DNA of 64,000 bases from Streptococcus gallolyticus subsp. gallolyticus DSM 16831 (GTDB lineage: Bacteria > Bacillota > Bacilli > Lactobacillales > Streptococcaceae). Positions within the stretch are counted from its first letter, which is position 1. Each line of letters begins with the position of its first letter. The translations under genes were made by a program, and so were the position numbers. The DNA lies in the NCBI RefSeq assembly GCF_002000985.1, contig NZ_CP018822.1, forward strand, positions 2,250,001 to 2,314,000, given 5' to 3'. Positions 21,851 through 56,806 of this stretch are shown here, piece after piece. The notes under the pieces are model-generated. The model saw only the letters and a program-made list of their open reading frames with translations. It was not told the DNA's origin and did not search any database.

Positions 21851-21983
21851 AGAGGCTGAGACAAAAGTACTCAGCTTCTGTGTTTATATAATTATTATTT
21901 ACAAGGCGCAGTGGTTGAGATAACGAAATCGAATTTCTTCGAAATTACCGATTCGCTTTTTAATCTTTATTTGTCCCACTCCC
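21851..21983 (-). repeat. Hairpin-mosaic repeat, short copy A
   Basis: Read on the minus strand, this starts GGGAGTGGGACAAATAAA, continues through AAAAAGCGAATCGGTAATTTC and ends in a GCTGAG-N9-CTCAGC hairpin. Both ends match the repeats at 39568-39959 and 53552-54028, but about 250 bp of the middle is missing. It lies inside the ntp operon between ntpG and ntpA. Confidence 0.8.
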
Positions 21984-39567: not shown

Positions 39568-39959
39568 GGGAGTGGGACAAATAAAGTCTCCAGTGGAGAC
39601 TTTATTCATGAGCATAAAAACTAAAAAGCGAATCGGTAATTTCGAAGAAATTCGATTTCTCAGCAAGTCTTAATTTCTTGTTGCTGACCTAAAACAGTTC
39701 ACTGAACTGTTTTTGACACTTACTTCGTAAGTTTTATTTCCCGATTATAAAGGTTCCCCGAACCTTTATAACCCATCCCCGCATGGCTCAAAAGGTTTGG
39801 GGAACCTTTTGAGGTTGGAAATGAAGTCAAGCGCAGCTTGATGTCAAAAGGGTTGTAAAAGCTGATTTATCAGCGCATTAGAATCCACTCAACTACTGCG
39901 TCTTGCAAATAATAACTATATAAACAAAGAAGCTGGGTACTTTTGACCCAGACTCTTTT
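39568..39959. repeat. Hairpin-mosaic repeat, full copy B
   Basis: ~390-bp non-coding element made of successive hairpins: AAAGTCTCC/GGAGACTTT, AAAACAGTTC/GAACTGTTTT, ACTTAC/GTAAGT, AAAGGTTC/GAACCTTT, CAAAAGGTT/AACCTTTTG, GTCAAGC/GCTTGA, GCTGAT/ATCAGC, and finally CTGGGT/ACCCAG. The last one, read on the minus strand with its T-rich flank, probably terminates gltX. It is homologous to 53552-54028, and its two ends match 21851-21983. Confidence 0.85.
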
Positions 39960-39965
39960 ATTATA

Positions 39966-41423
39966 TTATTTCAAGCTGTTAAGCATATTTTCGATGTGTT
40001 CAATTGATTTTTCACGACCAAGAAGGTAGATAGTATCTGGAAGTTCTGGACCGTGCATTTCACCTGAAACAGCGATACGAATTGGCATAAAGAGGTTTTT
40101 ACCTTTGATACCAGTTTCTTTTTGAACAGCTTTGATTTGTGGGAAGATATTTTCTGATTTGAAATCTTCGTCACTCATCGCTTCAAGTTTAGCTTTGAAA
40201 GCTTCAAGAACTGTTGGAACGGTTTCACCAGCCATGAATTCTTTTTCAGCATCTGTCAATTCTGGGAAATCTTCGAAGAACAAGTCAGTCAATGGAATGA
40301 TTTCGTCAACAGATTTCATTTGTGGTTTATAAAGTTCAACCAATTTTTCTGCTTTATCAGTCAAACGACCAGCTTCTTCCAAGAATGGTTTCGCCATTGC
40401 AAAGATTGTATCAAAATCAGCATTCTTGATGTATTCGTTGCTCATCCAGTCCATTTTCTTTTGGTCAAAGGCAGCTGGAGATTTGCTCAAACGATTTTCA
40501 TCAAAGAGTTTGATTAATTCTTCACGTGAGAAGATTTCGTCTTCACCACCAGGATTCCAACCAAGAAGAGCGATAAAGTTAAAGACTGCTTCTGGCATGT
40601 AACCTTTTTTACGGTAGTCTTCGATAAATTGAAGGGTATTTGTATCACGTTTTGACAATTTTTTACCAGTTTCAGAGTTGATAATCAATGTCATGTGACC
40701 GAATTCTGGTGCTTCCCAACCAAGTGCTTCGTAAACCATCAATTGTTTTGGTGTGTTTGCAATATGGTCATCCCCACGGATAACATGAGAAATTTCCATC
40801 AAATGGTCATCAATAACAACGGCGAAGTTGTATGTTGGGTAACCATCTTTTTTCTGGATAACCCAGTCACCACCGATGTTGCCACCTTCAAATTCGATGT
40901 CGCCTTTAACGATATCATGCCATTTGTAAATGCCTGATTCGTTAACAGCCAAACGAACAGTTGGAACGATTCCTTTAGCTTCACGTTCTGCGATATAAGC
41001 AGCTTTTTCGTCTTCTGACATACCAAGGAATTCGTTGATATAACGAGGTGTTTCACCAGCAGCTTCTTGGCGTTCACGTTCTGCCGCTAATTCTTCTTCA
41101 GTAACGTATGATTTGTAAGCTTTACCTTCTGCCAACAATTGGTCAATGTATTTTTGGTAAATGTCCAAACGTTCTGATTGGCGATATTTTTCATGAGTTT
41201 GTGGGCTTTCGTCCCAATCCATTCCCAACCATTTAAGGTTTTCCAATTGTGAACGTTCACCGTCTTCGACATGACGTTTACGGTCAGTATCTTCGATACG
41301 GATAACAAAATCACCACCATGGTGACGAGCATAAAGATAATTAAAGAGCGCAGTACGCGCATTTCCGATGTGTAAAAGTCCTGTTGGACTTGGTGCATAA
41401 CGCACGCGAATTTTCTTAGGCAT
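39966..41423 (-). CDS. gltX: Glutamyl-tRNA synthetase
   Basis: 485 aa class I aminoacyl-tRNA synthetase. HIGH motif as [14 protein letters not shown] (residue ~12), KMSKS motif as GKKLSKRDT (~255). Like other streptococcal GltX it probably charges both tRNA-Glu and tRNA-Gln. Start ATG at 41423 behind AGGAGACGAAA; the upstream in-frame extension lacks a site. It is a single-gene unit. Confidence 0.97.
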
Positions 41424-41482
41424 TTTCGTCTCCTGTTGAATTTCAATCATTTCTATTATAGCACAATATTTATCCTTGGAAC

Positions 41483-41509: not shown

Positions 41510-41528
41510 CCTACGTATTTTTCAATAT

Positions 41529-41590
41529 TTGATTTCCAGCAAGTTTTGATTTCTTGTTGTTAACCTAAAACGGTCTATTTCCAGACCATT
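41529..41590. repeat. Hairpin-mosaic repeat, fragment D
   Basis: About 60 bp matching the internal part of copies B and C (AGCAAG..TTTGATTTCTTGTTG..ACCTAAAACGG), including the AACGGTCT/AGACC hairpin. It lies between gltX and the LURP-one-like gene. Confidence 0.65.
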
Positions 41591-53527: not shown

Positions 53528-53551
53528 ATTTTTTCCTTTATTTTTTAAAAG

Positions 53552-54028
53552 GGAGTGGAACAAATAAAATCTCCAGTGGAGATTTTATTCATGAGCCTAG
53601 AAATTAAAAAGCGAATCGGTAATTTCAAAGAAATTCGATTTCTCAGCAAATCTTAATTTCTTGTTGCTGACCTAAAACGGTCTATCCCCAGACCGTTTTT
53701 GACACTTACTCCGTAAGTTTTATTCCCCGATTAAAAAGGTTCACCGAACCTTTTTAACTCACCCCCGCATGGCTCGAAAGATTTGGGGAATCTTTCGAGG
53801 TGGGAAATAGAGTCAAGTGAAGCTTGACATCAAAAAGGTTGTAAAAGCTGATTCATCAGCGTATTAGAACCCACTCAGCAGTGATTGATTGGCACTGAAG
53901 TGCCTAATCAATTGTGCATGGGAAACTCTAAGTTGACTAAAGTCAACAGAGTTTCTCCAAACTACTGCGCCTTGCTTACTACAACTACATAAGTAATGAA
54001 GCTGAGCATCTTTTATCTCAACTTCCTT
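53552..54028. repeat. Hairpin-mosaic repeat, long copy C
   Basis: ~475 bp homologous to 39568-39959. Several stems are changed pairwise: AAAATCTCC/GGAGATTTT, AAAACGGTCT/AGACCGTTTT, CGAAAGATT/AATCTTTCG. Two extra hairpins are inserted at ~53884-53913 (ATTGATTGGCACT / AGTGCCTAATCAAT) and ~53922-53955 (GAAACTCT..GTTGACT / AGTCAAC..AGAGTTTC). No coding content. It lies between dapH and dapL. Confidence 0.85.
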
Positions 54029-56679: not shown

Positions 56680-56693
56680 TTAGTTTTATATAC

Positions 56694-56772
56694 AAAAAGA
56701 GCACACACCTACAATCGCTTAGGGCTGCTGGATTCCTCCCCTGACCCACTTCACGCGCAGATGTTGCTCCGA
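56694..56772 (-). ncRNA. ffs: Signal recognition particle RNA (4.5S/scRNA, small bacterial type)
   Basis: The minus strand contains the SRP domain IV core GTCAGG..GGAA..CAGCAGCC (bulge and tetraloop hairpin) with flanking arms that pair (GGAGCA at the 5' end with TGCTC at the 3' end, ACATC with GGTGT). TATAAT at 56778-56783 is a few bases upstream and a T-run follows the 3' stem. Ends are approximate. It lies directly after tadA, a common streptococcal position. Confidence 0.92.
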
Positions 56773-56806
56773 GGAATATTATATCATAATTTCTAGATTA
56801 TGCAAA

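What the first reader, a model, noticed from the sequence alone, without database searches (positions are those of the whole stretch)
39568..39959. Hairpin-mosaic intergenic repeat family with compensatory base changes
Copies B (39568-39959) and C (53552-54028) are alignable over ~390 bp and consist almost wholly of consecutive hairpins. Stems differ while pairing is kept: AAAGTCTCC/GGAGACTTT versus AAAATCTCC/GGAGATTTT; AAAACAGTTC/GAACTGTTTT versus AAAACGGTCT/AGACCGTTTT; CAAAAGGTT/AACCTTTTG versus CGAAAGATT/AATCTTTCG; the end hairpin CTGGGT/ACCCAG versus GCTGAG/CTCAGC in copy A. Paired substitutions in several stems point to selection on a folded RNA or cruciform, not on DNA sequence. Family identity could not be checked; similar 'GGGAGTGGGAC' elements may be known in streptococci.
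Basis: partly seen in the sequence, partly recalled or inferred. Interest (0 to 1): 0.8.

Follow-up and report, generated by a model that had tools for sequence, protein, structure and literature searches.

The report
Repeats that replace gene-end terminators
The region holds a long member of a widespread family of hairpin-rich, non-coding DNA repeats of streptococci and staphylococci whose stems change in matched pairs, and whose copies in streptococci tend to stand where a gene's small stop-signal hairpin stands in related strains, which suggests an unusual way for a repeat to spread.

Summary
Copies B (39568-39959) and C (53551-54027) are real, fold far better than shuffled sequence (z -7.7, -9.8), and belong to a modular repeat family at about 25 places in this chromosome. 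Its core is a 176-bp short form. The short form matches 153 of 197 Streptococcus genomes; a covariance model finds it in 51 of 398 Bacilli genomes, in 2 of 145 genera (Streptococcus and, by inference, Staphylococcus). Paired changes are strong: 43 of 47 pairs, 0 of 500 shuffles, 0 of 200 tree simulations. But young copies inside one genome decay without favouring pairing, so structure seems kept in the lineages that spread, not in every copy. The surprise is placement: at 20 of 21 sites where a relative lacks the element, the relative has a terminator-like hairpin there; at 16 the element stands in that hairpin's place to within a few bases, with no target duplication of 5 bases or more where tested. 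The long forms are BOX-like (boxB-like module); S. aureus copies share the STAR 'start signature'. Best reading: a BOX/STAR-type mobile repeat that spreads by replacing terminator hairpins. How it swaps is unknown.

The parts
39568..39955 (+). Element copy B (long form), just downstream of the glutamate--tRNA ligase gene, ends GGGAGTGGGAC ... GACCCAGACTC
   Evidence: in relative G162 the flanks meet at a 22-nt hairpin instead
39580..39606 (+). First inserted hairpin module of B (ATAAAGTCTCCAGTGGAGACTTTAT), lying at the place of the short form's internal loop
   Evidence: position read by eye
39630..39658 (+). Tip of core hairpin H1 in B (GAATCGG..CGATTT)
   Evidence: core model
39691..39713 (+). 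Hairpin cassette AAAACAGTTCACTGAACTGTTTT (a different cassette in copy C)
39745..39771 (+). Potential hairpin TTATAAAGGTTCCCCGAACCTTTATAA
   Evidence: sequence; in the minimum-energy fold of B it pairs with the next module instead, in C it folds locally
39786..39849 (+). boxB-like module GCTCAAA-loop-TTTGAGGTTGGAAAT-hairpin-TCAAAA
   Evidence: side by side with BOX-type modules in named S. mitis, S. infantis and S. peroris loci
39850..39886 (+). Inner part of core hairpin H2 in B
39933..39951 (.). Tail hairpin, terminator-like on both strands
53551..54027 (+). Element copy C (long form), between a tetrahydrodipicolinate N-acetyltransferase gene and an amidohydrolase gene, both read on the minus strand
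53772..53835 (+). boxB-like module of C (paralogue of the one in B; reads GCTCGAAAG, so the pattern does not list it)
   Evidence: read by eye
53884..53958 (+). Two further hairpins found in C and in L002, L003, L005 but not in B
21851..21983 (-). Copy A, a shortened or decayed copy; also present in relative G111
41527..41590 (+). Remnant of the family upstream of the glutamate--tRNA ligase gene
39966..41450 (-). Glutamate--tRNA ligase gene; copy B (with its T-tract) ends 6 bp from its stop codon
54031..54774 (-). Tetrahydrodipicolinate N-acetyltransferase gene; copy C ends about 4 bp from its stop codon

Best explanation
B and C are long, module-expanded members of a non-coding mobile repeat family of the BOX/STAR kind. 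The core is three hairpins between ends that read AAAAGAGAGTGGGACA... and ...TGTCCCAGCCTCTTTT. In streptococci the family spreads by taking the place of intrinsic-terminator hairpins, so that the small hairpin is lost while the flanking A- and T-tracts mostly stay. The ends then serve as outward-facing terminators for the genes on either side. After arrival the middle changes by tandem gain and loss of boxB-like modules and by exchange of cassettes between copies. Shown here: the family, its structure with covariation, its presence in two genera of the sample, its position next to stop codons in two streptococcal genomes, hairpin-for-element differences at orthologous sites, and short versus long forms at one site. 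Inferred: that the ends terminate transcription, that the fold is kept because it is needed for spreading, and that replacement is a single event. Unknown: the enzyme or repair path that makes the swap.
For: Replacement: of 19 own-genome sites tested against relatives, 8 are empty in a relative (7 with 92-100% identical flanks in G162, L012 at 78-79%), 8 shared, 3 not comparable; all 8 empty sites hold a hairpin. Of 17 sites filled in other genomes (taken on from 21 queried), 10 have an empty relative with a hairpin, 1 an empty relative without (L142), 1 is complex (L186), 1 shared, 4 not comparable. Copy C and the gltX 3' end in S. cristatus add two. In a uniform re-check the hairpin centre lies within 3.5 nt of the gap centre at 13 sites and 5 nt off at copy C; no direct repeat of 5 bases or more flanks the element at any of the 18 sites with valid borders. 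Polarity: at several sites three or more relatives share the small hairpin. Placement: 67 full copies (of 77 hits) in 1.2 Mb of genome G125, none inside a gene model; stop codon 23.5 bp away at the median (52 of 88 within 30), start side 130 bp (n 46); convergent gaps 23 of 67 versus 63 of 616 element-free gaps (p 8e-7), divergent 2 of 67 versus 84 of 616 (p 0.01). A-tract before and T-tract after the ends. Covariation. Unpaired bases conserved while stems vary. Short and long forms at one orthologous site. In about 98 kb of aligned stretches with G162, none of 6 diverged windows was a terminator-for-terminator swap without the family.
Against: L142 shows no hairpin in its relative. At L239, L240 and L242 the element's ends resemble the arms of the small hairpin, so insertion into its loop, arms kept, is not excluded there. 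15 of 22 comparisons fold as well as or better than 95% of random windows; the other 7 do not. Duplications shorter than 5 bases would be missed. Copies in the second genus do not hug stop codons: stop-side median 171 bp (17 distances, 15 loci). The scan finds a terminator-like site at the tail of B but at neither end of C. No transcript data. Gene models are long-ORF heuristics. The control for terminator turnover without the family is small. No mobilising enzyme found: Y1 transposases, the REP-type candidate, are absent from this genome and 9 of 11 other element-bearing streptococci tested.
Confidence: 0.6

Rival explanations
1. A host-beneficial structured RNA (3' UTR regulator, RNase III target or sRNA), kept at each locus by selection on the folded transcript.
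For: Covariation with conserved bulges; more G.T than A.C between subfamilies (52 versus 22, p 0.0006) and between orthologues (22 versus 10, p 0.05); orthologous stems differ less than unpaired bases (3.1% versus 5.5%, p 0.004).
Against: Young copies decay without regard to pairing. The orthologue difference fades to p 0.09 without one doubtful pair. G.T is only 2.0% of cells (52 of 2565) against 19 of 204 in a small, rough tRNA control. Orientation to co-directional neighbours is even, 21 versus 21. Presence differs between close relatives.
Confidence: 0.12
2. The paired changes are mutational: hairpin arms are copied from each other by template switching or palindrome correction, without selection.
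For: Between subfamilies two-sided changes are many (520 cells) and wobble intermediates rare.
Against: In 67 young copies there were 115 one-sided changes in the core stems and no two-sided Watson-Crick change, so arm copying is not frequent on that time scale. The conserved bulged A's and the internal loop survive, although arm copying would tend to erase them (inference).
Confidence: 0.15
3. A classical MITE, mobilised in trans by an IS transposase, that inserts with target duplication near gene ends, where insertions do least harm.
For: Terminal inverted repeats (AAAAGAGAGTGGGACA / TGTCCCAGCCTCTTTT); pneumococcal BOX and RUP are described as having TIR and TSD (PMC3049150, passage); [quoted passage not shown]
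Against: A hairpin stands at the empty site in 20 of 21 cases; no duplication of 5 bases or more at 18 sites (shorter ones untested). Tolerance alone does not explain coincidence with a hairpin.
Confidence: 0.17
4. Terminator hairpins in general are exchanged through their A- and T-tracts (microhomology template switching or gap repair), and this family is only the most visible passenger.
For: Copies are bracketed by an A-tract and a T-tract, as terminators are; site L014 has different small hairpins in G162, G146 and G084.
Against: No family-free hairpin swap in the one region scanned (about 98 kb), but the power is low. Site L176 has no T-tract.
Confidence: 0.3

Closest known systems
BOX elements of S. 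pneumoniae / S. mitis (boxA-boxB-boxC)
   Same: Modular, intergenic, hairpin-rich, variable number of a central module; a boxB-like module GCTCAAA..TTTGAGGTTG + hairpin in B, L003 and L032, set beside BOX-type modules in named S. mitis, S. sp. M334, S. infantis and S. peroris loci; enriched between convergent genes.
   Different: Ends read differently; a hairpin is replaced where TSD is described for BOX; the short form is found across the genus, whereas the 2011 survey found BOX, RUP and SPRITE almost absent outside S. pneumoniae and S. mitis, with BOX-type elements in S. suis (PMC3049150, section 7).
S. suis BOX-type family bounded by boxE (about 115 nt) and boxF (about 133 nt)
   Same: Sizes and order (5' module, boxB, 3' module) fit the forms seen in L033, L035, L058 and the minimal form in L205.
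   Different: The text read gives no sequences, so identity is an inference.
STAR loci of S. aureus
   Same: 'Start signature' GTGGGACAGAAATGAT (PMC3532100, passage) is found in the 5' arm of H1 in the S. aureus copies L203 and L204.
   Different: STAR loci carry conserved motifs with 40-44 bp spacers; whether they are forms of this element was not tested.
Rfam RF02894 (S35, Staphylococcus sRNA 35)
   Same: Sub-threshold matches: E 5.7e-6 in L007, 1.6e-4 twice in L041, 4 sites in the own genome.
   Different: 29.8 to 41.4 bits against a gathering score of 69; not a member by Rfam's cut-off.
REP/BIME elements with RAYT (Y1) transposases
   Same: Imperfect palindromes with conserved unpaired bases, extragenic (recalled).
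   Different: No Y1 transposase found in the own genome or in G125.

Membership tests
BOX (S. pneumoniae type) | Modular array with variable number of boxB | tested here: met
   One module in B and in C, two in tandem in L003 and L005 (read by eye)
BOX (S. pneumoniae type) | boxB sequence signature | tested here: met
   Pattern match in L001 (B), L003, L032 and in S. mitis L098, M334 L102, S. infantis L087, L095, L101, S. peroris L104; not in C, which reads GCTCGAAAG; the pattern was recalled, not taken from a call
BOX (S. pneumoniae type) | boxA and boxC end modules | not tested
   The ends read GGGAGTGGGAC / GTCCCAGCCTC; no boxA or boxC model was at hand to score them
BOX (S. pneumoniae type) | Target-site duplication on insertion | tested here: inconclusive
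   No direct repeat of 5 bases or more at 18 sites with valid borders; shorter ones untested
S. suis boxE-boxB-boxF | boxE and boxF sequences | not testable with these tools
MITE | Terminal inverted repeats | tested here: met
MITE | TIR shared with a resident IS | not tested
   No IS ends compared
STAR (S. aureus) | Start signature | tested here: met
STAR (S. aureus) | Conserved STAR motifs with 40-44 bp spacers | not tested
   Motif sequence not taken from any call; L203 and L204 only read in part
Structured RNA | Covariation beyond relatedness | tested here: met
Structured RNA | Transcribed and folded | not testable with these tools
   No transcript data
Intrinsic terminator | Hairpin followed by T-tract at each end | tested here: inconclusive
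   Tracts at the ends of G125 copies and terminator-like sites at B's tail; not at C's ends

The most novel reading that the evidence does not exclude
A class of mobile DNA that spreads by substitution instead of insertion: it swaps a host's intrinsic-terminator hairpin for itself, hairpin for hairpin, and so keeps gene ends working while it multiplies. BOX-type repeats of streptococci and STAR loci of staphylococci would be descendants of one such lineage.
Probability: 0.4. Interest if true: 0.92.

Novelty: new variant of a known kind. Interest (0 to 1): 0.74.

Why it matters
How BOX, STAR and similar repeats multiply is, as far as I know, an open question. Replacement of terminator hairpins, if it holds on larger sets, gives a concrete and testable mode of spread, would explain why such repeats sit at gene ends and rarely do harm, and would join repeat families of two genera that have been described apart. 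It also shows that matched stem changes in a repeat family need not mean that each copy is a working RNA.

Tried and rejected
Rfam at gathering threshold gave only the SRP RNA in the window. RNAalifold on the first 55-row alignment gave a confused structure: hairpin tips were misaligned and one row (L211) was the wrong way round. It was replaced by a gapless 14-row alignment with a hand-written structure, which an unconstrained fold of the G125 consensus then largely reproduced. Alignment A3 is fitted to the model, so the unfitted A2 counts and a tree-based simulation were added; both agree, except that A2's number of pair types does not exceed shuffles (497 of 500 reach it).

Frequent arm copying as the cause of paired changes was set aside on the young copies. 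A resident Y1/RAYT transposase was set aside as a general mobiliser: 2 of 12 element-bearing streptococci have a match, against 5 of 8 streptococci without a match to the short form.

Rows dropped: 13 of 110 weak model matches for the G.T/A.C, conserved-base and tree counts, then near-identical rows; L211; two polymorphic columns; own site L009 (its flanks are repeats) and 4 of 21 sites of other genomes (L141, L173, L241, L243; no good counterpart). In one search I set wrong element borders for L180, L176 and L184, so those rows are void. In one search anchors or lengths were set by hand at L140, L184, L239, L240 and L242. Four of the 26 orthologue groups carry all 12 two-sided Watson-Crick differences; some look like replacement by another copy.

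Literature: no paper found that describes terminator replacement by such repeats; searches (open-licence papers only). Seen: PMC3049150 abstract, section 4 parts 1 and 2, section 7, and passages; PMC3532100, PMC9093591, PMC2267715, PMC2828477 passages and abstract starts; the rest as search listings.

Full report
WHAT IS THERE. The window is bases 2250001-2314000 of a 2.49 Mb Streptococcus chromosome; its glutamate--tRNA ligase protein is 99% identical to that of S. gallolyticus BI02 and 98% to that of S. equinus Sb04. Copy B lies between the glutamate--tRNA ligase gene and a CynX-like transporter gene (below that family's cut-off), copy C between a tetrahydrodipicolinate N-acetyltransferase gene and an amidohydrolase gene. 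Both copies fold far better than shuffled sequence, B on both strands and C on the one folded. A blast of B against its own genome gives 45 matches (40 of 48 candidates scored), which I group into 25 places. Two shorter pieces lie in the window besides: copy A (21851-21983) and 41527-41590.

THE CORE. The long copies are expansions of a short form of about 176 bp (L007, L008, L014, L016). It has hairpin H1 (GGGAGTGGGACA..TCGTCCCACCCCC), hairpin H2 (GCACAGTTGAGTAGGG..CCCACTCAACCACTGCG) and a tail hairpin. The short form matches 153 of 197 Streptococcus genomes. A covariance model of H1 and H2 built from 14 gapless streptococcal copies finds matches in 51 of 398 Bacilli genomes, in 2 of 145 genera, under filters that lose some weak matches: 25 streptococci and 26 genomes of one other genus. 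That genus is taken to be Staphylococcus because two named S. aureus-derived records carry the same element (L203, L204) and match the model at 89.6 and 86.6 bits. Both records are filed as phages; one has fluoride transporter and glyoxal reductase genes next to the copy, so these are probably chromosomal copies (inference).

PAIRED CHANGES. On 104 distinct rows, 96.1% of cells pair, 43 of 47 pairs have two-sided changes and 520 cells are two-sided (shuffles 117.6, sd 13.8; 0 of 500 reach it), and sliding the partners collapses the signal. That alignment is fitted to the model. The unfitted 14-row alignment has 10 pairs and 33 cells with two-sided changes (shuffles 10.6 cells; 0 of 500), although its number of pair types is no higher than in shuffles. 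A simulation along a tree with the same substitutions per branch gave 24 pairs and 75 cells at the mean against 36 and 342 observed, 0 of 200 as high (68 rows). Copies recombine, so the tree is only approximate. Among the conserved positions are unpaired ones: a bulged A in H1 (55 of 57 rows), the 1x3 internal loop (A 54, G 55, T 55 of 57; its last base varies), and a bulged A in H2 (55 of 57). Differences between streptococcal and S. aureus copies include TTGAGT/ACTCAA versus TTGACT/AGTCAA and GCTGAT/ATCAGC versus GCTTGT/ACAAGC.

WHICH STRAND AND WHICH LEVEL. A fold on one RNA strand should tolerate G.T and not A.C. Between subfamilies G.T exceeds A.C, 52 to 22 (p 0.0006), but G.T is only 52 of 2565 cells; in acceptor and T stems of 17 tRNAs from the loci at hand it was 19 of 204, with no A.C (a small and rough control with 19 unexplained mismatches). 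Among 67 full copies of one genome (G125) the bias is gone (37 to 40 in the core), stems change as fast as unpaired bases (1.96% versus 2.35% with two polymorphic columns left out, p 0.34; 4.4% with them in), and no two-sided Watson-Crick change was seen. Between orthologous copies (26 groups, one pair each) stems change less than unpaired bases (3.1% versus 5.5%, p 0.004), but only p 0.09 without one doubtful pair; G.T is 22 and A.C 10; 12 two-sided Watson-Crick differences fall in four groups. My reading is that the structure is kept in the lineages that multiply, and single copies mostly drift. A fold that must form on both strands would also explain why both wobble types are rare; this is inference.

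PLACEMENT. In 1.2 Mb of G125 none of 67 full copies lies inside a gene model. The nearest stop codon is 23.5 bp away at the median (52 of 88 within 30 bp), the nearest start 130 bp. Convergent gaps are favoured (23 of 67 versus 63 of 616 element-free gaps of 40 bp or more, p 8e-7), divergent ones avoided (2 of 67 versus 84 of 616, p 0.01). The element's ends are bracketed by an A-tract and a T-tract. In the own genome 11 of 18 listed copies lie 0 to 11 bp from a stop codon. In the second genus this is not so: stop-side median 171 bp (17 distances, 15 loci).

REPLACEMENT. Orthologous sites without the element were sought for 19 own-genome sites, 17 sites of other genomes, copy C and the gltX 3' end in S. 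cristatus. Twenty-one sites have a relative that lacks the element and can be aligned, not counting the complex site L186. At 20 of them the relative has a hairpin at that place, as a rule with a following T-tract; L142 is the exception. At 16 the gap coincides with the hairpin to within a few bases: 13 with the hairpin centre within 3.5 nt of the gap centre and copy C 5 nt off in a uniform re-check, L180 and L176 by the edges. At L012, L140, L184 and L238 one edge is loose or the relative is diverged. At L176 the hairpin is weak; at L239, L240 and L242 the element's ends resemble the small hairpin's arms, so insertion into its loop is not excluded there. Examples: copy B, AAAAG|CCCAAGGTTTACATCTCGGG|CTTTT in G162 against AAAAG|GGAGTGG...CCCAGACT|CTTTT here; S. 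cristatus, AAGAT|AAACCAGCTTTCGAGCTGG|TTTTTGC in L107 against AAGAT|GAGAGTGG...CAGCC|TTTTGC in L082. No direct repeat of 5 bases or more flanks the element at the 18 sites with valid borders. 15 of 22 comparisons (copy C entered twice) fold as well as or better than 95% of random windows. At several sites three or more relatives share the small hairpin (L189, L174, L240; gltX in S. cristatus, S. sinensis and S. gordonii), so the hairpin is the older state there. In about 98 kb of aligned stretches between the own genome and G162, a scan for short diverged windows gave six, none a hairpin swap outside this family; that control is small.

THE MOSAIC. At copy C's site the own genome and G111 have long forms, G146 and G020 short forms, and G162 a short form with one extra hairpin; the tail is nearly the same in G000, G111, G162 and G146 and differs in G020. 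Read by eye, the extra hairpin enters at the conserved internal loop of H1, and the long insert at the other side of the same loop. boxB-like modules occur once in B and in C, twice in tandem in L003 and L005, and as a mismatched chimera in L002. So part of the B-versus-C difference is exchange or loss of paralogous modules, not point compensation.

WHAT IT IS. The long forms have a BOX-type layout and a boxB-like module, and fit the S. suis boxE-boxB-boxF family in order and size, but no boxE or boxF sequence was at hand. The S. aureus copies contain the STAR start signature. Rfam's S35 is hit below threshold. I place it as a new variant of the BOX/STAR kind, with hairpin replacement as the feature not described in the papers seen. 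The mechanism of the swap is open: template switching or gap repair between A- and T-tract brackets, or an unknown hairpin-cutting enzyme; a resident Y1 transposase is unlikely.

LIMITS.

Noticed in passing
L053 (unnamed Streptococcus genome G013): Tandem array of a hairpin unit ATGGTCCGGGGGACCATTTTTTCATGAGCTTGAAAACGAAGAAGCGAATC, whose second half resembles the CATGAGCCTAGAAATTAAAAAGCGAATC stretch of copy C: one module amplified on its own.
   Followed up: no
L486, L487 (G060, G146), orthologous to the site of L140: The same gene-end site carries a decayed family copy in two relatives, in L487 (and probably L486) starting from the tail end, that is in the opposite orientation.
   Followed up: no
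L203, 560-866: Tandem hairpin repeats (GGAGCGAAGATCCAACTGTAAACC...) next to the S. aureus copy.
   Followed up: no
window 56690-56775, minus strand: Bacterial small SRP RNA gene (Rfam RF00169, 57.4 bits).
   Followed up: no
L014 site in G162, G146, G084 (L417, L419, L420): Each relative has a different small terminator hairpin at the same place, so terminators may turn over fast here even without the element.
   Followed up: partly
L336 and L332 (second genus): Copies with very similar flanks (99.4% and 91.0%) differ by three two-sided stem changes, which looks like replacement by another copy.
   Followed up: no
short form, 5' arm, H1 3' arm and tail: GTGGGAC can pair with either of two GTCCCA(C/G) stretches, the H1 partner or the tail, so the ends have two exclusive folds.
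   Followed up: no
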